Part shown: in pieces, positions 3,286 through 59,858 of the stretch
Position numbering within the stretch: the first letter of the stretch is position 1
How the letters are laid out: the number at the start of each line of letters is the position of its first letter
DNA from: Mya arenaria
Taxonomy: Eukaryota; Mollusca; Bivalvia; Myida; Myidae
Length of the DNA: 64,000 bases
Assembly: GCF_026914265.1 (NCBI RefSeq)
Contig: NC_069135.1
Location: forward strand, 39,017,946 to 39,081,945
Reading direction: 5' to 3'
Position numbers and translations under genes: made by a program
Notes under the pieces: generated by a model
The model's input: the letters and a program-made list of their open reading frames with translations, nothing else
Told to the model about the DNA's origin: nothing
The model's database searches: none

Positions 3286-3620
3286 ATGACTTTAAATTTG
3301 AAGTCATCACTTCAGAGGGGCTGTGACTTTATTCACGACTTTGCCTGCTCTCCGTGTGAAGAGAATGGATTTAACACCGAAGCTCACCTTTATTGTAGTC
3401 AATGCACAAAATATTACTGTCAAAATTGTGTTTCAAAACATAACGGATTATATCAGAAGCACGCGGTGCTCGGCCGGAAGGACGTGAAGAAATGGGAGGC
3501 AGCACCAGGGGTGGTGAACGCCCTTGAGAGATGCGGGATGCACCCCGGGGAGGCGCTGAAGCTGGTATGTGGTGACCATGACCAGCTGTGCTGTCATGTG
3601 TGCGTCGCCGTGGACCACAG
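3286..3620 (+). CDS. B-box/NHL-like TRIM-family gene, copy 1, exon 1
   Basis: This exon encodes 111 residues plus two bases. It opens MTLNLKSSLQRGCDF, collinear with the start of copy 3. A B-box1-type finger follows (C-x2-C, then YC-x2-C, C-x2-C, and two His near residue 52-59). The first part of a B-box2 comes next (C-x2-H near residue 83, then C, H, C-x2-C and H). There is no RING domain before the B-boxes. The exon ends in CACAG|GTATGT, a good donor in phase 2; the last B-box2 ligand is supplied by exon 2. Related bivalve proteins are usually called TRIM56/TRIM71-like; role (ubiquitin pathway or innate immunity) is inferred from family only. Spliced to exon 2 at 4371, the frame runs off after about 48 codons, so the full-length protein is lost. 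Confidence 0.75.
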
Positions 3621-3640
3621 GTATGTTAGATATATGACAA

Positions 3641-4236
3641 TATTAAGGTGCACAACAATGGTTCATTCAATTTCTTTTTATTATTATTTATGCATTATAA
3701 GGTTAAACTCATTTGACTTTTAAACAAAACAAAGCTTACGATTTGTAAATATTAAGGAAATATCAGCCTAAATATATCATATTTTTAATTTAAAAGCTAC
3801 TAGGCCACAAATTCCCCAGATAAAACAAGTACAAAATATGATTTATATTTTTTATTCGTATTCGTATTTGCTGTTATGTGTGTGTCGCCGTGGAACACAG
3901 GTTTGAATGAAGGAAATGTCAATTTAAAGGCGCACAACATAGGTTGATGGCAAAATATTTTTTTGTTTTTTATAAATTTTTAATTTCAAATTACTTGACC
4001 GGCTATAATCAAAACAAAAAGGCCTATCATTGTGTACATTTTACAGAAATATTGGTCTTTGAACATGCAAATGGGGATTTCAATTAATTGCTACGTGGCC
4101 AAAATTTAAAAAAAAAATCATTGAATCGGTACACATATTTTTTTTTTTGATCAATCAAGTCAAATAAATAAACCATAATAATACATTAAAAATTAATAGA
4201 AAATATTTTTGCATCAACCTTTATTGTGCGCCTTTA
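3641..4236 (+). repeat. Intronic MITE copies with duplicated exon-1 tail
   Basis: A MITE of about 315 bp lies at 3921-4236. Its left end is AAAGGCGCACAACATAGG and its right end is the reverse complement, ending ATTGTGCGCCTTT, flanked by TTAA-like sequence. A second, more decayed left end (AAGGTGCACAACAATGG) begins near 3645. Between them, 3869-3899 repeats the last 30 bases of exon 1 including the CACAG|GT donor. A block made of exon tail plus MITE was therefore duplicated inside this intron. Copy 4 carries the same arrangement at 53398-54087. Confidence 0.65.
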
Positions 4237-4370
4237 AGACAAAAAAAGGAAACTAATCTATACGTAATTGCAATTTTTAATCATATACTTTAACATTGTC
4301 TCACATAAGCAAGGCCACATTCAATTTGATCATATCTGATTACAAATGTTTCACAACTTCTTTGTTTCAG

Positions 4371-5745: not shown

Positions 5746-6116
5746 CTATTAACAAGCATATAAACATATTCTATTTTGTTATACAGTCTCCGTTTTGTAA
5801 ACTCATTAAAAAAGAGGCGAATTAACGCTTGATCAAATTCGTTCTGGTGTCAATAAATACGTTGGCACTTTCAAAACACCATCATTCTGATTTATTCAAT
5901 TTAAATATAATGAAGACTTACTTGCATAACTCACACACAATCAGGTGAATTGCAATAGAAAAAATAATAAAACAATCTTTTAACTCAATGTCGGTGATAG
6001 GTTTCACGTGAACCATAAGAAAATCATCTTTGGAAGAATGCATACTCGACTTTGAACAAAATTAATATTGAAGGATAGGTTCTCAAGAAAACAAACCAAA
6101 AACACAACATACTGAT
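5450..6116 (+). other. 3' flank of copy 1 with (TG)n and polyadenylation signal
   Basis: This sequence is collinear with the flanks after copies 2-4. A (TG)n tract at 5660-5745 sits exactly where copy 2 has only GTGTATATATTGCC, so the microsatellite grew after the duplication. AATAAA at 5852-5857 is conserved in copy 2 (34148-34153) and is the best candidate polyadenylation signal, about 400 bp after the stop. Confidence 0.55.
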
Positions 6117-6408
6117 CACGTATAACATCGACAGTCTCTGTTAGATGGAGACTTACATCTCACGTATTACATCGGAAGTTTTGGTTAGATTCAGTCTTAC
6201 ACCTCACGTATTACATCGGAAGTTTTGGTTAGATTCAGTCTTACACCTCACGTATTACATCGGAAGTTTTGGTTAGATTCAGTCTTACACCTCACGTATT
6301 ACATCGGAAGTTTTGGTTAGATTCAGTCTTACACCTCACGTATTACATCGGAAGTTTTGGTTAGATTCAGTCTTACAGCTAACGTATTTCATCGGAAGTT
6401 CGAGCCAA
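6117..6408 (+). repeat. 44-bp minisatellite downstream of copy 1
   Basis: About 6.5 units of 44 bp, with core words ATTACATCGGAAG, TTTTGGTTAGATTCAG and TTACACCTCACG. The middle units are nearly identical, so the array was homogenised recently. Diverged arrays of the same unit follow copies 2, 3 and 4. Confidence 0.9.
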
Positions 6409-30040: not shown

Positions 30041-31680
30041 AGTTCACCTGAGCACCAAGTGCTTAAGGTGGGCTATTGTGATCGCCCTGTGTCCGTCGTC
30101 CGTCGTAGTCGTCCGTCGTCGTCCGTCGTCAACAATTTGACTGTTAACACTCTAGAGGTCACAATTTGGGCACAATCTTATTGAAACTTGGTCAGAATGT
30201 TACCCTCAATAAAATCTTGAACGAGTTTGATATTAGGTCATCTGGGGTTAAAAAAACCTGGTCACCAGGTCAAATTAAAGGAAAAGCTTGTTAACACTAT
30301 GGAGGACACATTTATGACTGTATCTACAGGAAGCTTAGTCAGAATGTTAATATTTAAAATCTCTAGGTCAAGTTCGAATGTGGGTCATGTGCTGTCAAAA
30401 ACTAGGTCACATGGTCAAATTGAAGGAAAAGCTTGTTTACACTCTAGAGGTCACATTTATGACTGTATCTTATTGAAAGTTGGATAGAATGTTCATATTA
30501 ATAATCTTTAGGTCAAGTTTAAATCTGGGTCATGTGTGATAAAAACTACGTCATTAGGTCAAATCATAGGAAAAGCTTGTTAGCACTCTAGAGGTCACAT
30601 TTATGAATGTATGTTAATGAAATTTAGTCAGAATGTATATATTGATTAGCTCTAGAAAAAGCTCGAATCTGGATCATGTGCAGTCAAAAACTAGGTCTAC
30701 AGGTCAAATTGAAGGAAAATCTTGTTAACACTCTATAGGTCACATTTATAAATGATTCATCATGAAATTTGGTCAGAATATTATATTAATAATCTCTAAG
30801 TCAAGTATAAATCTGGTTCATGTGCGGTCAAAAACTAGGTCATTAGGTCAAATCATAGGAAAGGCTTATTAGCACTCTAGAGGTCACACTAATGACTATA
30901 TGTTCATGAAACTTAGTCAGAATGTTTATATTGATTAGCACTAGGAAAAGTTCGAATTTGGGTCATGTGCGGTCAAAAACTAGGTCAAATTAAAGAAAAA
31001 GCTTGTTAACACACTAGAGGTCACATTTATTACTGTATCTTCATGAAAGTTGGTCAGAATGTTAATATTAATAATCTCTAAGTCAAGTTTGAATCCGGGT
31101 CATGTGTGATAAAAAATTACGTCATTAGGTCAAATCATAGGAAAAGCTTGTTAGCACTCTAGAGGTCACATTTATGACTGTATGTTCATGAAACGTAGTC
31201 AGAATGTTTATCTTGATTAGCTCTAGGTCAAGTTCGAATCTGGGTCATGTGTGGTTAAAAACTATGTCACCAGGACAAATAATAGGAGGTCAAAAACCAG
31301 GCCACTAGGTCAAATCATAAAAAAAACTTTGTATACACTCTAAAGGTTATATTATCTCTTTGATCAACATGAAACTATGTTTGTGTTTATGAAGTCTATG
31401 TCAAGTTTGAAACTGGGTAACCCGAGTTCAAAAACTAGGTCACGAAGTCAAATCATAGAAAACATTGTTAAAACACTGTTGAGGCCATATTTTCTACTTT
31501 ATCTATATGAAACCTGGTCAAAATGTACTTATTACAGCAAGGAAAGGTTTGCACTTTCCATCGCCCTGAAAAACACTTATTCCCTTCCCCTGTCACAATT
31601 GCCCTCGCCCTGAAAACACTAATTTCACACTTGAATTGGATCAGGTGAGCGAAACAGGGCCTTCAGGTTCCTCTTGTTTT
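30041..31680. mobile_element. 1.6-kb repeat element with internal 150-bp tandem units, in the intron of copy 2
   Basis: The left end TTCACCTGAGCACCAAGTGC leads into a (CGTCGTC)n-like tract; the right end is ATCAGGTGAGCGAAACAGGG ... CTCTTGTTTT. Short inverted ends (CACCTGAGC / GGTGAGC). Inside are about nine units of roughly 145-150 bp repeating CACTCTAGAGGTCACATTTA, GTCAGAATGTT, AGGTCAAGTT and CAAAAACTAGGTCA. Non-coding. It interrupts a MITE whose ends remain at about 29992 and 31961. Confidence 0.7.
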
Positions 31681-32007
31681 ATTTAACTCATTCGACTTTA
31701 GTGATTAAAGAAAAGAAAGCTAATGATTTGTGTAAATTTAAAAAAGCCTTAATACATGCATACAGTGTTTTTCACAAATAGCTACGTGGCCATACATTCA
31801 CCAGTTAAAATGTGCCAACATATCATCTATATTGCAATATCTTTTTAATCTGAAAACAAATCATACGGTTTTTCTGGCTTTGATTATTTTAAGTAGAATT
31901 AATAAAACATTAAAATGAAATTAAATTTAAAAGAAAAATCTTGTTTATGCATCAACCTAAATTTTGCGCCTTTAGGACACTAATATGTAAATAAGCTTTA
32001 CTGACCA

Positions 32008-33783: not shown

Positions 33784-34414
33784 AACTTAAAATAATGTTT
33801 GTTTTGGTACTATTTAACTGGGATCTTCCTTATTGCTGCAAAGTTCATTGTCATGTACAATTGTCTTCTTTAGACCGCTGGCTATAAGTAATATGATATG
33901 AATCCAAAAGCATCTTGTGAATACTTTACTTTTATCATATTTTGGAAAAAAATTAACCCATTTACTATGTGAAATATTATTTATATATATATGTGTTCTA
34001 TTTGATGAATGTAGAATGTTCAATTTTCGTGTATATATTGCCTATTAAGAAGCATGTAAACATATTCTTTTTTAGTATGCTATTTTCGTTTTGTAAAGTC
34101 ATTAAAAGAGTGGCCAATGAACGCTTTATCAAACTCGTTCTGGTGTCAATAAATATGTTGGCAATAATCACTTTGAGAACACCATCATATTGATTTAGTT
34201 AATTTAAACACAGTGAAGATTTTCATGCACAATTCACACACAATCAGATGAATCACAAATAAAAAAATCAAAAAAAATCTTAATTCAATGTCGGTGATAG
34301 GGTTCACGTGAACCAAAATAAAATCATCTTTTGAAGAATGCATACTAGATTTTAAACGTAAACTAAATAAAATACTGAAGGAAAGATTCTCACGAACACA
34401 TATACAAGTACAAC
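33784..34414 (+). other. 3' flank of copy 2
   Basis: Collinear with the flanks of copies 1, 3 and 4. AATAAA at 34148-34153 is at the same position as in copy 1. No gene. Confidence 0.55.
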
Positions 34415-34930
34415 ATACATCTCAAGTATACCATCGACAGTCTCAGTTAGATTTGCATCATACATCTCTCGTAATACATTGACAGTCTCGGTTAGATTTG
34501 CATCTTACACCTCACGTAATACATCGAAAGGCTCAGTTTGATTGAGACGTACATATTACGTATTACATCGACATACTTTGTTTGACTGAGTCTTACGATT
34601 CAGGTTTAACATCAACAGTCTCAAATTGAATAAGACTTACATATCACATACTAGTAAATAATTGACAGACCGGTTTAATTGAGACTTACATCTAACGTGT
34701 TACATCGACAGCCTCCGTTAGATTGAGACTTACATTCCGCGTAAACCATCGATAGTCCCGGTTAGATTGCGACTAACATCACACATGTAGCATCGTCAAT
34801 TTCGGTTAGTTTGAGACTTACACCCCAGGTGTTACATTGACAGTCTCCGGTGGACTGGGACTTACATCTCACGTGTTACATCGACAGTCTCGGTAAGATT
34901 GAAACTTTCATCCCACACATTAAATCGTCA
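34415..34930 (+). repeat. 44-bp minisatellite downstream of copy 2
   Basis: About 11-12 diverged units with core CATCGACAGTCTC, GTTAGATTGAGACTTAC and ATCTCACGT. Same family as the arrays after copies 1, 3 and 4. Confidence 0.9.
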
Positions 34931-35559: not shown

Positions 35560-38168
35560 CTGGTCGTGGTTTCATGAAGAAAAACCAGATTTCAGGAAGG
35601 GACACATGATTTCAAGGAGGGACACCTGATTTCAGGAAAGGACATACGATTTCAGGGAGGGACACCTGATTTCAGGAAAGGACATACGATTTCAGGAATG
35701 GACATATGATTTTAGGAAGGGACATATGATTTCAGAAAGAGACACCTACTTTCCGAAAGGGACACCTGCTTTCAGGAAGGGACACCTGCTTTCAGGAAGG
35801 GACACCTGATTCGAGAAAGGGACATATGATTTCAGGAAGAGGCACCTGCTTTCCGGAAGGGTCACCTGATTTCAGGAAGAGACACATGATTTCAGGAAGA
35901 GACACATTAATTCAGGAGGGGACACATAGTTTATGGAAGGACACCTGATTTTAGGAAGAAAAATTTGATTTCAGGAAGGGACACATGATTTAAGAAAGCG
36001 ACAGCTGCTTTCAGGAACGGACACCTGATTTCAGGAAGGGACATCTGCTTTCAGGAAGGGACACCTGATTTTAGAAAGGGACACCTGATTTCAGGAAGGG
36101 ACACCTGCTTTCCGGAAGGGTCACCTGATTTCAGGAAGGGACACATGATTTCAGGAAGGGACACATGGATTCAGAAAGAGACACATTAATTCAGGAGGGG
36201 ACACATAGTTTCTGGAAGGACACCTGATTTTAAGAAGAAACATTTGGTTTCAGGGAGGGACACATGATTAAAGAAAGAGACAGCTGCTTTCAGGAAGGGA
36301 CACCTGATTTCAGGAAGGGACAACTGATTTCAGGAAGGGTCACATGATTTAAGAAAGCGACAGATGCTTTCAGGAAGGGACACCTGATTTCAGGAAGGGA
36401 CACCTGCTTTCCGGAAGGGACATCTGATTTTAGAAAGGGACACCTGATTTCAGGAAGAGACAACTGCTTTCCGGAAGGGTCACCTGATTTCAGGAAGGGA
36501 CACATGATTTCAGGAAGGGACACATGAATTCAGAAAGAGACACATTAATTCAGGAGGGGACACATAGTTTCTTGAAGGACACCTGATTTTAGGAAGAAAC
36601 ATTTGGTTTCAGGGAGGGACACATGATTTAAGAAAGAGACAACTGCTTTCAGGAAGGGACACCTGATTTCAGGAAGGGACAACTGATTTCAGGAAGGGTC
36701 ACATGATTTCAGGAAGGGCCACATGATGATACGAGTGTAGTCATTTTTTCTGGAAGTCACAAATGCTTCTAGAAAGAAAAAATGATTTCAGAAGGGGACA
36801 CATGATTTCCGGAAGGGACATATGATTTCAGGCAGAATCACTTGATTTCTGGACAGGAAAATTGATTTGAGGAAAAGATAGATGATTTCAGTAAGGGACA
36901 CGTTATTTAAGGAGGGGATTCAGGAAGAGAAACAATATTTCAGGAGTGAACCAAGATTTCATGAGCAGACACATGATTTCAGGAGGGGACACATAATTTC
37001 AGGAGGGGACACATAGTTCCAGGAGGGGGATATAATTTCAGGAGGGGACACATAATTTCAGGAGGGGACACATAATTTCAGGAGGGGACACATAATTTCA
37101 GGAGGAGACACATAATTCCAGGAGGGCAGATATGATTTCAGGAGAGGACATATGATTCCAGGAGGGGACACATGATTTCAGTAGAGGACACATGATTCCA
37201 GGGAGAGACATACGACTACAGGAGAGTACACATGATTTCAGGAGGAGACACATTATTGCAGGAGGGGACACATGATTACAGTAGGTGACACATGATGTCA
37301 GGAGGGGCACATGATTCCAGAAGAGACACTTGATTACAGGAGTGGACACATAATTTCAGGAGGGCACTCATTATTGCCGGAGGGGACACATAATAGCAGG
37401 AGGGCACACATGATTTCAGGATAAGACACATGATTCCAGGAGGGGACACATGATTTCAGGAGAGGACATATGATTTCAGGATGGGAAACATGGTTTTTGA
37501 AGATGAAGTCTTTATTTCAGGACACCCTCTTATTGGTAGAAGCGACTTATAACTGGAAGGGACACATGATTTTAGGAAGGAACACATGAGTTCAGGAGGG
37601 GACACATGATTTCAGAAGCGGACACATGATTTCAGGAGGGGACATATTATTTCAGGAGGGGACACATGATTTTAGGAAGGGACACATGATTCCTGGAGGG
37701 CATAAATGATTTCAGGAGAGGACACATGATTCCAAGAGGGGACACATGATTTAAGGAGAAGACACATTATTCCAGGAAGAGACATATCATAACAGGAGAG
37801 GACACATGATTCCAAGAAGGGATACATGATTTTAGGAGAGGACACATGATTCCAGGAAGAGAAATATGATTACAGGAGAGTACACATGATTCCAAGAGGA
37901 CACACATGATTTCAGGAAGAGAGACATGATTTAAGGAGGGTACACATGTTCGCAGGAGGGGACACATGTTTCTGGTGGGGACATATGATTGCAGGAGGGG
38001 ATACATTATTGCAGGAGGGAACACATGATTCAAGGAGGGGACACATGACTCCAGGAGGGGACACAGTATTCTAGGATTTGACACCTGGTTTTAGAAGGGG
38101 ACACATGATTTCAGAAAGAGACACATGATTGCAGGAGGGGACACATAACTCCAGGAGGGGGCACATGA
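35560..38168. repeat. 20-bp satellite (GATTTCAGGAAGGGACACAT)n
   Basis: About 2.6 kb, near 130 units of 20 bp. The left half is mainly GGAAGGGACACCTG, the right half mainly GGAGGGGACACATG, so two subfamilies are spatially sorted. A composite block (TTAATTCAGGAGGGGACACA ... TTTGGTTTCAGGGAGG) recurs near 35900, 36185 and 36540. Minus-strand frames of 70-105 codons are artefacts. Confidence 0.95.
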
Positions 38169-38786
38169 TGTGTACATATAACCAGAGTTTGTGGTTGGTA
38201 TCTGTCAATTGTGTGAATCACACAAACTACTTAAGGTAAAGTTGTTGTGTTCCGCTGCCATGGCAAAAGGAGGTATTATATATTGACATCTCATATTAAA
38301 ATAAAGGTTGAGTTAAGATGCTGGTTTTGGAATATTACTTATTGACTTATAAATGTTGTTTCTAAATGCATTTTGAATGAAAACTTAAACCTTATCTTTT
38401 TCATGTCAACATTTGATAGAAGAGAAATTACTTGAAGAGATGTTTACTTTTGAACCTTAAAAAGACATTGTCTATCTTTTCAATACATTTTAAACTACAA
38501 AGCATACTGTGTCTTAATGCTGGAATACCGGCAAACAGACAATAAGAAAATATTTGCCATTATATTTTACGACTACCTTGGTTTAGAAACTAGTCCTTCT
38601 TTTGAACGTAATAATATATTGTAGACAAATGTCTTGTTGACGATTTACAATGTCTTTCTGTCTAAATGGCTTTAGATTGACTTTTAATATTATTAAAATT
38701 ATAAAATTATTTCTATTATATTATCTAAGAATAGTTTTTGAGTCGTTTATATGAAATGGTCAGGCACGGCCTTTGATAAGTGGTCA
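38169..38786. other. Intergenic, no gene recognised
   Basis: AT-rich spacer. No features beyond chance frames. Confidence 0.5.
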
Positions 38787-51291: not shown

Positions 51292-53376
51292 CCAAGCTCC
51301 ACTTGTACATCAGACCTGACGCTCATGTCTACTTCTAAGGCGACACCCGCCACAACAGATGTACCTACATCCACTTGCTTACCAGACCTGACGCTCATGT
51401 CTACTCCTCGGGCGTCGCCGTCAATACAGCAGGACCCACGGCCACTTTGACACCAGACCTAACGCACATGTCTACTCCGAGGACGTCGCCCGTCACTTCA
51501 GCAGGACCCACGGCCACTTGCACACCAGACCTGACGCCCATGTCTACTTCTCGGGCGTCGCCCGTCACTTCAGCAGGACCCACGTTCACATGCACACCCG
51601 ACCTGACGCCCATGTCTACTCCTCGGGCGTCGCCCGCCACTACAGCAGGACCCACTGCCACCTGCACAAAAGACTTGACGCCCATGTCTACTCCTCGGAC
51701 GTCGCCAGTCACTTCAGCAGAAACCATGGCCACATGCACACCAGACCCGACGCTAATGTCAACTCCTCAGGCGTCACCCGCCACTACAGCAGGACCCACG
51801 GCCACTTTGATACCAGATCTAACGCACATGTCTACTCCGAGGACGTCGCCCGTCACTTCAGCAGGACCCACACCCACTTGCACACCAGACCCGATGCCGA
51901 TATCTACTACTCGGGCGTCGCCCGCCTTTACAGCACGACCCACGGCCACATGCACACCAGCCCTGACGCTCATGTCAACTCCTCAGGCGTCTCACGCCTT
52001 TACAGCAGGACCCACGGCCACTTGCACACCAGACATGACGCTCGGGTCTACTCCTCAGGCGTCGCCTGCCACTACTGCAGGACCAACGAAAACTAGCACA
52101 CTTCAGCAGGACCCACGGCCACTTGCACACCAGACCCGCCGCCAATGTCTACTCCTCAGGCGTCAGCCCACTACAGCAAGACCCACGACTTGCACACCAG
52201 ACCTTTCTTTAATGTCCATTCCTCAGGCGTCGCCCACCACTACAGCAGGACCTAGTGCCATTTGCACACTGGACCTGACGCCCATGTCTACTCCTCAGGC
52301 GTCGCCCGTCACTACAGCATGACCCATGGCCACTTACATACCAGACCCGCCGCCCATGTCTACTCCTCAGGCGTAGCCCGAAACTACAGCAGGACCCACG
52401 GCCTCTTGCACACCAGACCTGACGCTCATGTTTACTTCACAGGCGTTGCCCACAACTACAGCAGGACCCACGGCCATTTGCACACCAGACCTGACACTCG
52501 TTTCTATTCCTCAGGCGTCGCCCGTCACTACAGCAGGACCTACAGCCACATGCACACCGAACCTGACGCTCATGTGTACTCCTCAGGCATCGTCTGCCAC
52601 TACATCAGGACCCACGGCCACTTGCACACCAGACCTGACGCTCTCGTCTTCACATCAGGCGTCACCAGCCACTACAGCAGGACCCACGGCCATTTGCACA
52701 TCAGACCCGACGCTCATGTCTACTCCTCAGGCGTCGCCCGCCACTACAGCAGGATCCACATCCTCTTGCACACGCGACCTGTCGCTCATGTCTACTCCTC
52801 AGTCGTCGCCCGCCACTACAGCAGGACCCACAGCCACTTGCAAACCAGACCCGACGCTCATGTCTACTCCTCAGGCACGCCCGCCACTACAGCTGGCCAC
52901 TTGCACACCAGACCTGACGCTCGTAGTTACTTTTCAGGCGTCGCTCGCCACTAGAAGGACCCACGGCCACTTTCACATCAGACCCGACTCCCATTTCTAC
53001 TCTTCAGGCGTCGCCCGCCACTACCAGGACCCACGGCTCCTTGCACATCAGACCCGACGCTCATATCTACACCTCAGGCGTCGTCCGCCACAACAAATGG
53101 ACCCACAACCTTTTGCACACCTGACCCGGCGCTCATGTCTACTCCTCGGGCCTCGCCCGCCACTACAGCAGGACCCACGGCCACTTGCATACCAGACTTG
53201 ACGTTCATGTCTACCCTAAGGAGTCGCCTGCCACAACAGCGGGACCCATGGCCACTTGTGCACCAGACCTGACACTCATGTCTACTCCTCAGGCGTCGCC
53301 CGCCAAAACAACATGACCCACGGCCTCTTGCACTCCAGACCTGACGCTCATGTCTAGTCCGAGGGCGTCGCCAAAG
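51292..53376 (+). repeat. 72-bp GC-rich satellite, 24-residue mucin-like frame
   Basis: About 29 units of 72 bp with core ACCCACGGCCACTTGCACAC and CATGTCTACTCCTCAGGCG. The unit is a multiple of three, so frames stay open for long stretches: one reads TAGPTATCTPDLTLMSTPQ (Thr/Pro/Ser-rich, mucin-like), another SRTHGHLHTRPDAHVYSSGV. Scattered indels swap the two, so no single frame spans the array and no start or splice signal supports a gene. It ends at a GTATGT that matches the intron start of gene copy 1 and occupies the place of copy 4's exon 1. Confidence 0.9.
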
Positions 53377-54087
53377 GTATGTTAGAAATATGACAATTGT
53401 ACGGTGAACAACATAGGTTCATGCAATGTTTTTCATTATTATCATGTGTGCATTGTAAGTTTAAAACTCATTTGACTTGAAAACAAAAATAAACAAACAA
53501 AATAAAGCTTACGCTGCGGTATATTAAACAAATATCAGCCTTTGTAATTAATATTTTTCATTTAATAGCAACGTGGTTCCCCAGATGAAAAAGTACAAAC
53601 TATTATTTTTTTTCTATCGTATAAACATCATATGCCTTTTTTGTTTTGATTGTTTGAATATGAAATGAGTTAAACATTATCATTCATTTTTCGCATCAAC
53701 CTATATAATGCGCCTTTGCTGTTATTCGTGTGTCGCCGTGGATCACAGGTTCGAAGGAAGAAAACGTCAATTTAAAGGCGCACAACATAGGTTGAAGCAA
53801 AAATATTTTTTTCGTTTTTTATAAATAAATATTTTTAACTTATTTGACTATTCATGATCAAAACAAAAAAGGCTTATGATTGTGCACATTTAACAAAATA
53901 TTAGTCTTGAAATATGCAAATGGTGATTTCAGTTAATAGCTACGTGGTCACAAATTCCCCACACATAATATATACACAAATTATTTCTTTTCGGTTTTAT
54001 TCAATCAAGTCAAATTAATAAACCATAATAATTCATTAAAAATTAAAATAAGATCATTTTTGCATCAACCTATATTGTGCGCCTTTA
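53377..54087 (+). pseudogene. Intron remnant of gene copy 4 with MITEs and duplicated exon-1 tail
   Basis: GTATGTTAGAAATATGACAA at 53377 matches the first bases of the copy 1 intron. A MITE copy runs from about 53398 to 53717; a duplicated exon-1 tail with donor lies at 53718-53748 (GTGTGTCGCCGTGGATCACAG is the tail, of which only the last bases are shown by context); a second MITE runs from 53774 to 54087. The order is the same as in copy 1, so copies 1 and 4 share this intron history. The B-box-encoding exon itself is absent. Confidence 0.65.
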
Positions 54088-56776
54088 GTCAACCTATATT
54101 GTGCGCCTTTAAGACACAGAACGGTGACTAATCTATACGTTATTGCGTCAACCTATATTGCGCGCCTTTAAGACACAGAACGGTGACTAATCTATACGTT
54201 ATTGCGTCAACCTATATTGCGCGCCTTTAAGACACAGAACGGTGACTAATCTATACGTAATTGCGTCAACCTATATTGCGCGCCTTTAAGACACAGAACG
54301 GTGACTAATCTATACGTTATTGCGTCAACCTATATTGCGCGCCTTTAAGACACAGAACGGTGACTAATCTATACGTAATTGCGTCAACCTATAGTGTGCG
54401 CCTTTAAGACACAAAACGGTAACTAAGCTATACGTTATTGCGTCAACCTATATTGCGCGCCTTTAAGACACAAAACGGTAACTAAGCTATACGTTATTGC
54501 GTCAACCTATATTGTGCGCCTTTAAGACACAAAACGGTAACTAAGTTATACGTTATTGCGTCAACCTATATTGCGCGCCTTTAAGAAACAAAACAGTAAC
54601 TAATCTATACGTAATTGCGTCAACCTATACTGTGCGCCTTTAAGACACAAAACGGTAACTAATCTATACGTTATTGCGTCAACCGGTAACTAATCTATAC
54701 GTTATTGCGTCAACCTATATTGCGCGCCTTTAAGACACAAAACGGTAACTAATCTATACGTAATTGCGTCAACCTATATTGCGCGCCTTTAAGACATAGA
54801 ACGGTGACTAATCTATACGTAATTGCGTCAACCTATAGTGCGCGCCTTTAAGACACAAAACGGTAACTAATCTATACGTAATTGCGTCAACCTATATTGT
54901 GCGCCTTTAAGACACAGAACGGTAACTAATCTATACGTAATTGCGTCAACCTATATTGTGCGCCTTTAAGACACAAAACGGTAACTAATCTATACGTAAT
55001 TGCGTCAACCTATATTGCGCGCCTTTAAGACACAGAACGGTGACTAATCTATACGTAATTGCGTCAACCTATATTGCGCGCATTTAAGACACAAAACGGT
55101 TACTAATCTATACGTTATTGCGTCAACCTATATTGTGCGCCTTTAAGACACAAAACGGTAACTAATCTATACGTAATTGCGTCAACGCATAGTGTGCGCC
55201 TTTAAGACACAAAACGGTAACTAATATATACGTTATTGCGTCAACCTATATTGTGCGCCTTTAAGACACAAAACGGTAACTAATATATACGTTATTGCGT
55301 CAACCTATATTGTGCGCCTTTAAGACACAAAACGGTAACAAATCTATACGTAATTGCGTCAACCTATATTGTGCGTCTTTAAGACACAGAACGGTAACTA
55401 ATCTATACGTTATTGCGCCAACCTATATTGTGCGCCTTTAAGACACAAAACGGTAACTAATCTATTCGCAATTGCGTCAACCTATATTGTGCGCCTTTAA
55501 GACACAAAACGGTAACTAATATATACGTTATTGCGTCAACCTATATTGTGCGCCTTTAAGACACAAAACGGTAACTAATCTAAACGTAATTGAGTCAACC
55601 TATATTGTGCGTCTTTAAGACACAAAACGGTAACTAATCTATACGTTATTGCGTCAACCTATATTGTGCGCCTTTAAGACACAGAACGGTGACTAATCTA
55701 TACGTTATTGCGTCAACCTATATTGTGCGCCTTTAAGACACAGAACGGTGACTAATCTATACGTTATTGCGTCAACCTATATTGTGCGCCTTTAAGACAC
55801 AGAACGGTAACTAATCTATACGTTATTGCGTCAACCTATAGTGTGCGCCTTTAAGACACAGAACGGTGACTAATCTATACGTTATTGCGTCAACCTATAG
55901 TGTGCGCCTTTAAAACACAAAACGGTAACTAATCTATACGTTATTGCGTCAACCTATATTGTGCGCCTTTAAGACACAGAACGGTGACTAATCTATACGT
56001 TATTGCGTCAACCTATATTGTGCGCCTTTAAGACACAGAACGGTGACTAATCTATACGTTATTGCGTCAACCTATATTGTGCGCCTTTAAGACACAGAAC
56101 GGTGACTAATCTATACGTTATTGCGTCAACCTATATTGTGCGCCTTTAAGACACAGAACGGTAACTAATCTATACGTTATTGCGTCAACCTATAGTGTGC
56201 GCCTTTAAGACACAGAACGGTGACTAATCTATACGTTATTGCGTCAACCTATAGTGTGCGCCTTTAAAACACAAAACGGTAACTAATCTATACGTTATTG
56301 CGTCAACCTATATTGTGCGCCTTTAAGACACAGAACGGTGACTAATCTATACGTTATTGCGTCAACCTATAGTGTGCGCCTTTAAGACACAGAACGGTAA
56401 CTAATCTATACGTAATTGCGTCAACCTATATTGTGCGCCTTTAAGACACAAAACGGTAACTTATCTATACGTAATTGCGTCAACCTATAGTGTGCGCCTT
56501 TAAGACACAGAACGGTGACTAATCTATACGTTATTGCGTCAACCTATAGTGTGCGCCTTTAAAACACAAAACGGTAACCTATCTATACGTAATTGCGTCA
56601 ACCTATATTGTGCGCCTTTAAGACACAAAACGGTAACTAATCTATACGTAATTGCGTCAACCTATATTGTGCGCCTTTAAGACACAAAACGGTAACTAAT
56701 ATATACGTTATTGCGTCAACCTATATTGTGCGCCTTTAAAACACAAAACGGTAACTAATCTATACGTAATTGCGTC
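54062..56776 (+). repeat. 59-bp satellite derived from a MITE edge
   Basis: About 46 units of 59 bp. Each unit holds GCGTCAACCTATATTGTGCG and CCTTTAAGACACAAAACGGT, then AACTAATCTATACGTAATT. The first half is the right terminal repeat of the intronic MITE, the second half is the adjoining intron. Copy 1 has the same junction once, at about 4208-4272. Diagnostic variants (TAGTGTGCGCCTTTAAAAC) recur at 55898, 56252 and 56547, i.e. 354 and 295 bp apart (6 and 5 units), showing higher-order duplication. Confidence 0.95.
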
Positions 56777-56826
56777 ATGTGTTTTTTTACCCTTTTCTAT
56801 AACGTTGTCCCACATTAGCAAAGTCC

Positions 56827-58183
56827 AATTCCAGATGTAGCAAAAGGGAATCAGAGAAATATTGAGTTTCAACAAATTCCAAAGAAGAAAGCTGAACTTG
56901 AAAAGCAATTTGAGCTGATGAAAGAAGCAAGAATGAAGAATACGACAACTCTAAAAAAGACGCGGATAGCCATTTCTGATGAAATTAAAACCATACGTAA
57001 AACGATCAACGAAATCCTTGACAAGATTAAGAAGACAACAGGATTTGGACGGAATGATAGCTAAAGTTGAAAATAATATAAAGAAAGATATTGTAACTTG
57101 TGATGGAATGACTATCGAACTGCAAAACATGATTGTCGCTTTTCAAACCAAAGCAAATCAAGCGAGTCAAAATCATATATTGAGTACAGAAAGAGCCAGG
57201 ATATGATTTCACAGGCAAACGATCGTCTTCGTGGCATATCAGTCAAAGAGTGTAACAAAGTAACATTTCAAGCCAATAATCTTATCGAAGAACTTTAATC
57301 TTCAATAAAGACCTTTGGAGCGATTGACGAACAAACTGTAATGACCAAACAGCGAGAAGATCCCATTTGCGATCCAAACCACGTCTTCAGTGTTGCAGAG
57401 TACAAGGAGTACAACGTGAAGATGAGTGATGACAAAGGTGAATGTGATATCCGTGGCGTATGTGAGATGCATAATGGAGAGTTTGTAATAGCAGACAGGA
57501 ATAATTGTAAAGTGAAGCTCCTGGACAAGGAGTACAGGGTGCTCGACCACTTTGATGTCCCGGAGAAACCATATGACGTGTGCCACATTGACGGAAATGA
57601 AGTTGCAGTTTTTGTTAACAGTACTAATGCTGATAATCGAGGACTATATTTCATTAATGCTACGAAAGGGAAATTCGTAACTACGAGAATGTTAAGCTTC
57701 AACCATAAATGTTTAGCCGCATCTCATCATGGTGGCCAGCTTAACATAACCTCTGGTACCGCCCTGTACGTCTACACGATGTCGGGAAAGAAGATGAAGA
57801 TGTTGTACGAGGACGAGTCAAGGGTAATCACGGTGTGGAAATGTGCCATCAGTAACGACGGGGAATATTAATACATTACAAACAACAGTACACATCAACT
57901 GATCACCCTAGACAACAACGGCAACAAGCTGGCCTTACTCACTGACCCTGACATGAGGTACCCTACTCGAGTACACGTGACACCTGCTGGACACGTGTTC
58001 GTCTGTTGCCGTGACTCCGGCACAGTGCTGCAGGTTGACACAGACGGGATGAAAAAGTTGGCCACCCTGGCAAGGATAGAACACGGAGTGCGCAGACCGT
58101 ATGGTTCATTTTTCTGCAGCCGCACTTCTTCCATTATTGTTGATGGAATGAAAGACACACTTCTTATTATCAAGTTAATTTAA
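56827..58183 (+). pseudogene. B-box gene copy 4, exon 2 remnant
   Basis: Homology to exon 2 resumes at ATTCCAGATGTAGC with the splice acceptor and first codons deleted. Breaks relative to copy 3: a frame change near 57040-57050 in the coiled coil and another near 57155; a TTA-to-TAA stop at about 57296-57298; and a stop in the propeller at about 57869-57871 (GAATATTAA). Pieces 57341-57871 (HVFSVAEYKEYNVKMSDDKG and on) and 57953-58183 (THVTPAGHVFVCC-like) are otherwise propeller sequence. With exon 1 gone, this is a clear pseudogene. Several minus-strand frames are shadows. Confidence 0.9.
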
Positions 58184-58790: not shown

Positions 58791-59858
58791 AAACGTAGAA
58801 TATCGACAGTCTAAGTAAGAATGAGACTTTCACCTTACGTATAAAATCGACAGTCTCGGTAAGATTGAGACATACATCTCACGTATAACATAGAAAGTCT
58901 CGGTAGGATTGAGACTAACATTTCACGTACAACATCGACAGCTCGGTTAGATTGCGTCTTACATCTCACGTATAACATCGACAGTCTCGGTAGGATTGAG
59001 ACATACATCTCACGTATAACATCGAAAGTCTCGGTAGGATAGAGACATACATTTCACGTACAACATCGACAGCTCGGTTAGATTGAGTCTTACATCTCAC
59101 GTATAACATCGACAGTCTCGGTTAAATTGATACTTACATCTAACATATAACATTGACAGCTCGGTTAGTTTAGACTTACATCTCACGTATACAACGACAG
59201 TCTCCGTTAAATTCAGACTTACAGGTAACGTTTAACCTCAAGAACTCGGTTAGATTAAGACTAACATCTTACGTATTACATCGAAAGTCTCCGTTTGACT
59301 TGAGACATACATATCACGTTTAACATCAACAAGTCGGTAAGATAGATACTAACATCTCACGTATAACATCGACATTCTCGGTTAGATTGCGACTTAATCT
59401 CACTTATAACATCGACAGTATCGGTTATATTGAGACTTACATATCACATAAAACATCGACAGCTCGGTTAGATCAGACCGACATCTTAGGTATAACATCG
59501 ACAGCTCGGTTAGATTGACACTTCCATCTCATGCACGACATCGACAGTCTCGGAAGGATTGGGACTAACATTTCACGTATAAACTCGACAGTCTCGGTAA
59601 GATTGAGACTTACATCCCACGAAAAACATCGACAGTCTATGTTAGATATAGACCTACATCTTACGTACAGCATCGACAGCTCGGTTAGATTTTGACGTAC
59701 ATCTCAAGTATAACATCGACAGTCTCTGTTAGATTGAGACTAACATATCTTGCAAAACATCTCGGTAAGATTGAGCCGTACATCTCAGGATTAACATCGA
59801 GCCTCCATTAGACTTAAGACTTACATCTCACGTACAACATCGACAGTCACGGAACTAA
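58791..59858 (+). repeat. 44-bp minisatellite downstream of copy 4
   Basis: About 24 units, the longest of the four arrays, with CATCGACAGTCTCGGTTAG, ATTGAGACTTACATCTCACG and TATAA. Some units lack CT (GACAGCTCGG), a subfamily not obvious in the other arrays. Confidence 0.9.

What the first reader, a model, noticed from the sequence alone, without database searches (positions are those of the whole stretch)
54062..56776. A 59-bp satellite born from the junction of a MITE end and host intron
Each of about 46 units consists of the right terminal repeat of the intronic MITE (CAACCTATATTGTGCGCC) followed by roughly 32 bp of adjoining intron (ACGGTAACTAATCTATACG). Gene copy 1 keeps the same junction once at 4208-4272, and copy 2 has a decayed version near 31948. 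The pre-amplification state and the array are thus both present in one window. Shared variants spaced 354 and 295 bp apart show that blocks of six and five units were copied later. The array sits just before the exon 2 remnant of copy 4.
Basis: partly seen in the sequence, partly recalled or inferred. Interest (0 to 1): 0.75.

Follow-up and report, generated by a model that had tools for sequence, protein, structure and literature searches.

The report
Minisatellite born at a transposon edge
A 59-letter stretch made of the end of a small transposon and the neighbouring intron was copied dozens of times in a row, and sister genes still show it as a single copy, so start and result can be read side by side; the process itself is a known one.

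Summary
The array is real: 45 unit starts over 54065-56777, 43 of exactly 59 bp. Each unit holds the last 20 bp of a ~306-bp MITE, TTAA, and 35 bp of host intron. (i) The array is not private to this locus: six more (3-35 unit starts) lie in the same intron of B-box/NHL paralogues on the same contig; 19 copies there keep the junction once. None was listed elsewhere (capped list). (ii) Unit length equals the spacing of TTGCATCAA (MITE end) and TTGCGTCAA (intron), both complete in 5 of those 19, which fits the short-direct-repeat (Haber-Louis) model. Copy 1 lacks the full second word: a proxy, not the parent. (iii) A second clade made a 104-bp array from the same MITE end. (iv) Two loci with 99.6%/98.9% identical flanks have different array interiors. 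(v) Array loci are not one clade, yet share linked unit variants. MITE ends are not shown to be special: 1 of 48 sampled ends is duplicated. A good example of a known kind.

The parts
53776..54084 (+). Intronic MITE of copy 4, ~309 bp, ends AGGCGCACAACATAGGTTGA / TCAACCTATATTGTGCGCCT
   Evidence: the left end stands upstream of the junction in 18 of the 19 other paralogue introns parsed (not found in L077)
54065..56777 (+). 59-bp minisatellite: 45 unit starts (43 of 59 bp, one 24+59, one 59+31)
54065..54088 (+). First, truncated 24-bp unit (TIR + TTTAG) directly joined to the MITE body
55654..56361 (+). Exact tandem duplication of a six-unit, 354-bp block (units 27-32 = 33-38)
57236..58180 (+). 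Exon 2 (NHL-like) of copy 4, 74% identical to copy 1 over 315 aa, 2 in-frame stops: pseudogene
3928..4233 (+). The same MITE in copy 1, 306 bp, TTAA on both sides
4209..4272 (+). Single-copy junction in copy 1: TTGCA words at 4209 and 4268, 59 bp apart
31952..31987 (+). Decayed junction of copy 2, which groups with L066, the locus of the 104-bp array

Best explanation
A short non-autonomous transposon (MITE, TTAA targets) inserted once into the intron between the B-box exon and the NHL exon of an ancestral gene, before the family spread on this contig. By chance the word TTGCATCAA inside the MITE end came to lie 59 bp from TTGCGTCAA in the host intron. Slippage or unequal exchange between the two words duplicated the 59 bp; unequal exchange and block duplication then grew arrays of 3-45 units, which are remodelled faster than their flanks mutate. 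Shown: composition of the unit, single-copy state in paralogues, match of unit length to the spacing of the two words, block duplication, fast turnover at one pair of loci. Inferred: the slippage/exchange step, its timing, and the number of births among the C14 arrays, which this statement leaves open.
For: Same MITE at the same place in 19 of 20 introns parsed, both clades. The word TTGCATCAA or a near form stands at other copies of the MITE, so it is the transposon's. At the host position copies outside the cluster (L099, L100) read TTGCGACAA, and 10 of 19 single-copy loci of clade 1 read TTGCGTCAA (counted by eye); both words are complete in 5 of the 19 (L069, L074, L077, L082, L085). Unit = 59 = spacing of the two words. 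Internal junctions read mostly TTGCGTCAACC (window 43 of 44), host word then MITE. Copies read on C8, at C14 20 Mb and in the second clade have no 59-bp array. Exact six-unit block duplication. L059/L060: flanks differ at 10 of 2267 and 16 of 1493 aligned bases, while the longest stretch shared by their arrays is 111 bp without a variant. Units cluster by array: own-array nearest neighbour 0.55 against 0.16 shuffled, maximum 0.24 of 200.
Against: The 9-bp near repeat is not exceptional: over 76 offsets, offset 59 ranks 2nd-3rd in 4 of 9 single-copy junctions tested, 6th in one and 8th-37th in four; a repeat of equal length at offset 82 made no array. 14 of 19 single-copy loci lack one or both complete words, so the ancestral state is inferred. 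Ten of 26 junctions in L059 read TTGCC, which neither word explains. Array loci are not one clade by flanks (AU p 0.0009-0.027). No empty site was found (0 hits), and the left flank reads TTAA in only 6 of 19 copies.
Confidence: 0.8

Rival explanations
1. A variant of the best explanation: several independent births of the 59-bp array in different paralogues, all using the same two words, followed by exchange of units between paralogues.
For: Array loci are not a clade: p 0.019 upstream, 0.0009 downstream, 0.027 joined, 0.007 joined for the six without the window copy. Junction letters differ by array: GA in 18 of 30 in L064, AT in 9 of 25 strictly matched in L063 (18 of 35 units), GT in 43 of 44 in the window. 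Common array variants such as 31A>G and 38A>G occur in none of 12 distinct single-copy units, so the singles do not look like collapsed arrays of that kind. The 104-bp array shows that births can recur at this MITE end.
Against: Linked unit variants are shared between arrays: 31G+38G+53T in window, L059, L065; 6G+7C+11G in window and L060; 1A+36A in L059 and L064; L059 and the window share an exact 137-bp stretch with 5 variants. This needs common descent or exchange. The flank trees are star-like, and well-supported branches alone force only one change of the array label.
Confidence: 0.35
2. The 59-bp satellite existed before and was inserted next to the MITE.
For: Six further arrays exist; one exact junction word was listed on another contig, C15 (not followed up).
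Against: All seven arrays lie at the same intron site behind the same MITE; the host half is continuous with intron in 19 single-copy loci of the cluster; no array outside C14 was listed (lists cut at about 100-151 rows).
Confidence: 0.03
3. This MITE end is an intrinsic nucleus of tandem repeats, e.g. through its termini or transposase nicks.
For: Other tandem arrays hold the TIR word: 104 bp in the second clade, 34 bp on C4, 23 bp at one place on C2 and at least 12 on C9 (lists cut), and a two-copy ~137-bp duplication on C5 (L133).
Against: Only 1 of 48 sampled TIR sites (the first 50 exact places listed, less two in the C4 array) has a second same-strand TIR within ~150 bp, and none has a TRF array over the TIR; 20.2% of the window is TRF array of period 15 or more. 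By eye no MITE body stands upstream of the C4 and C2 arrays in the stretch read.
Confidence: 0.15

Closest known systems
Haber-Louis model of minisatellite origin (direct repeats of 5-10 bp flank the future unit); original paper not seen, known through passages of PMC3389668
   Same: Unit bounded by a 9-bp near repeat whose spacing equals the period; growth by slippage or unequal exchange
   Different: One of the two words was brought by a transposon insertion, and the single-copy state survives in paralogues of one genome
TE-derived minisatellites in human (PMC3389668; passages read)
   Same: Unit overlaps a transposon; of their 7,276, 300 are flanked by direct repeats of 5-20 bp
   Different: Here the unit straddles the transposon end and host intron
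MITE-associated satellites: Xenopus Xstir and miDNA4, bivalve pearl/DTC84 elements (passages of PMC12628747 and PMC5139131)
   Same: MITE linked to tandem arrays; short direct repeats invoked for miDNA4
   Different: In the passages seen the repeats are internal to the MITE; here they include its end and host flank
Tetris foldback element and its satellite in Drosophila virilis (PMC4079207; listing and start of abstract only)
   Same: A satellite built from a DNA transposon
   Different: No host flank in the unit is stated in what I saw

Membership tests
TE-derived minisatellite | tandem units of 10-100 bp containing transposon sequence | tested here: met
   59-bp units with 20 bp of TIR; TIR dispersed, 3532 hits vs 13 control
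Haber-Louis type minisatellite | short direct repeats bound the unit in the single-copy state, spacing equal to period | tested here: met
   TTGCATCAA/TTGCGTCAA 59 bp apart, both complete in 5 of 19 single-copy loci of clade 1; not the only repeat of that length there
MITE | short element with terminal inverted repeats and many dispersed copies | tested here: met
   268-347 bp in 18 of 19 measured (one stretched to 1978), TIR of ~20 bp, dispersed on many contigs; lack of coding capacity judged from length only
piggyBac-like MITE | TTAA target site duplication | tested here: inconclusive
   TTAA on both sides in 4 of 19 (c1, L064, L066, L071), left side TTAA in 6 of 19, drifted in others; TTTAA after the TIR at 27 of 48 sampled sites, counted by eye; no empty site found
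piggyBac-like MITE | autonomous partner with the same ends | not tested
   No transposase search was made
classical satellite DNA | long arrays at many chromosomal sites or in heterochromatin | tested here: not met
   The seven 59-bp arrays listed have at most 45 unit starts and lie in introns of one gene cluster; 'minisatellite' fits better. Heterochromatin not testable

The most novel reading that the evidence does not exclude
Transposon ends act as recurrent seeds of minisatellites in this genome: each insertion can place a TIR word beside a chance partner in the host, and within an expanded gene cluster the arrays then become exchange platforms whose interiors move between paralogues while the flanking genes do not.
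Probability: 0.2. Interest if true: 0.6.

Novelty: new member of a known kind. Interest (0 to 1): 0.4.

Why it matters
The origin of a tandem repeat is usually lost. Here one insertion was multiplied by gene duplication, so before-and-after states, a second array of different length and twin loci with freshly diverged arrays sit in one genome. This makes the short-direct-repeat model and the pace of array turnover testable.

Tried and rejected
Pre-existing inserted satellite: disfavoured. Copy 1 as exact ancestor: rejected, since its 3' word reads TTGCAATTTT and not TTGCGTCAA. Empty MITE site: not found; copy 3 of the window shows no junction, and its intron gave no clear empty site. L146, at the place expected for a duplicate of L062, has lost most of the unit; whether from an array or a single junction cannot be told. 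Flank trees used 20 loci (19 in the upstream test and the joined tree, L077 left out); L061, L067/L068, L146 and the short stretches L079-L092 and L095-L100 were left out of the trees, so the place of the C8 and C14-20-Mb copies was not tested by a tree. Papers: 8 searches; passages of four papers were seen (PMC12628747, PMC5139131, PMC9659126, PMC3389668). No satellite from a MITE-host junction showed up in those listings and passages, which is weak evidence of absence.

Full report
Setting. The window is C14:39017946-39081945 of a 1.216-Gb genome in 18 contigs. It holds copies of a gene with a B-box exon and an NHL-like exon (Pfam zf-B_box E 5e-9, NHL E 5e-5). Of 150 matches to the B-box exon 143 lie on C14; only 150 of 1402 candidates were scored, so this is a lower bound.

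The array. Units start 45 times between 54065 and 56716, 43 of them 59 bp long. A unit is TCAACCTATATTGTGCGCCT (MITE end), TTAA (target site), and GACACAAAACGGTAACTAATCTATACGTAATTGCG (host intron). Units 27-32 are repeated exactly as 33-38.

The transposon. The left end AGGCGCACAACATAGGTTGA or a near form was found upstream of the junction in 19 of 20 paralogue introns parsed; 18 elements measure 268-347 bp. The one of copy 2 is stretched to 1978 bp, and a 145-bp minisatellite (30142-31287) lies in that stretch. The TIR word occurs 3532 times in the genome at up to two mismatches, array units included, against 13 for the reversed control. The host half at up to two mismatches has 237 hits against 130 control hits; its exact hits were all on C14.

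Same array elsewhere. and the fetched loci show six more 59-bp arrays: L059 (27 unit starts), L060 (32), L062 (3), L063 (35), L064 (31, other strand), L065 (29). In these six both exons are found: no stops in five, one stop in exon 2 of L063, gaps in exon 2 of L062 and L065, a short start in L060. Among the seven array copies only the window's has two stops and no exon 1. Single-copy junctions in the cluster: copy 1, L067/L068 (one locus), L069-L078, L079-L085, 19 in all; further singles are L086-L087 on C8 and L099-L100 at C14 20 Mb. L061 has lost the MITE end. One exact junction word was listed on C15 and not followed up.

Why 59. In 5 of the 19 single-copy loci TTGCATCAA in the MITE end and TTGCGTCAA in the intron are both complete and 59 bp apart; others have changed one or both. 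The first word belongs to the MITE, since other copies show it or near forms. The second is host sequence: copies outside the cluster, L099 and L100, have TTGCGACAA there. Six of seven arrays begin with the first word or a near form of it (L065 reads CAGGCATCAA), and most end in TTGCGTCA or close to it. The test is suggestive, not decisive: a repeat of equal length at offset 82 stands in the same stretch, and offset 59 ranks low in 4 of 9 junctions tested.

A second birth. In a second clade at C14 41 Mb, L066 has six units of 103-106 bp that start with the same MITE end and run through host intron into another repeat (CAGGGGCGGG...; I take it for a hAT-like end from memory, untested). Its junction word was found only there: 5 hits, control 1. 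At its edges only GC is shared, so the short-repeat rule is weak for this one.

More tandem TIRs. A 34-bp array on C4 (12 junction hits, control 0) and 23-bp arrays on C2 and C9 (453 hits at up to 3 mismatches, control 0) hold the TIR word, and L133 on C5 is a diverged two-copy duplication of TIR plus flank. By eye no MITE body stands upstream of the C4 or the C2 array in the stretch read, so their descent from an insertion rests on the TIR alone. As a base rate, 1 of 48 sampled TIR sites has a second same-strand TIR nearby, and 20.2% of the window is tandem repeat of period 15 or more. The window is rich in minisatellites, and this end is not shown to be special.

Turnover. L059 and L060 agree at 2257 of 2267 upstream and 1477 of 1493 downstream aligned bases (9 gap columns aside). 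Their arrays share the consensus unit and two linked variants of the first unit, and no stretch over 111 bp. L059's units lie nearer to the window array (mean nearest distance 1.04 of 59) than to L060's (1.72). Units cluster by array (own-array nearest neighbour 0.55, shuffled 0.16, maximum 0.24), but linked variants cross between arrays.

One birth or several. Trees of flanks are star-like; array presence needs 3-5 changes, and one clade of array loci is rejected (p 0.019 upstream, 0.0009 downstream, 0.027 joined, 0.007 joined without the window copy). An array can in principle fall back to one unit by the same exchange, so one birth with losses stays possible; against it, common array variants are absent from the 12 distinct single-copy units. 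Births in several copies with exchange are about as good. I lean weakly to an early birth followed by loss and exchange.

Literature. TE-derived minisatellites and the short-direct-repeat model are established (PMC3389668, passages); MITE-linked satellites are known in frogs and bivalves (PMC12628747 and PMC5139131, passages). A unit that straddles a MITE end and host intron, with single-copy states retained, is a neat new case of a known kind.

Noticed in passing
window 51299-53372: GC-rich 72-bp tandem array (24 codons per unit, could read as a Thr/Pro-rich repeat) a little upstream of the MITE of copy 4, whose exon 1 is missing
   Followed up: no
window 6116-6400, 34414-34916, 58793-59852: Similar 44-45-bp minisatellites downstream of three gene copies, perhaps another array family travelling with the genes
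   Followed up: no
window 35584-38169: 20-bp array of about 130 units, with a 359-bp longer period in its first part
   Followed up: no
window 30142-31287: 145-bp tandem array inside the stretched MITE of copy 2
   Followed up: partly
window 3589-3625 and 3869-3905: The end of exon 1 with its splice donor is repeated (89%) inside the intron of copy 1, just upstream of the MITE
   Followed up: no
L093, L141-L144 (C9 37-46 Mb, C2 49.74 Mb): 23-bp arrays of the MITE TIR at at least 12 places on C9 and one on C2, possibly another gene cluster carrying its own array
   Followed up: partly
L133 (C5:30645304-30645621): Two-copy, diverged ~137-bp duplication of MITE end plus flank: perhaps an array at its first step
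   Followed up: partly
C15:44433257-44433281: One exact copy of the array's junction word outside C14, listed
   Followed up: no
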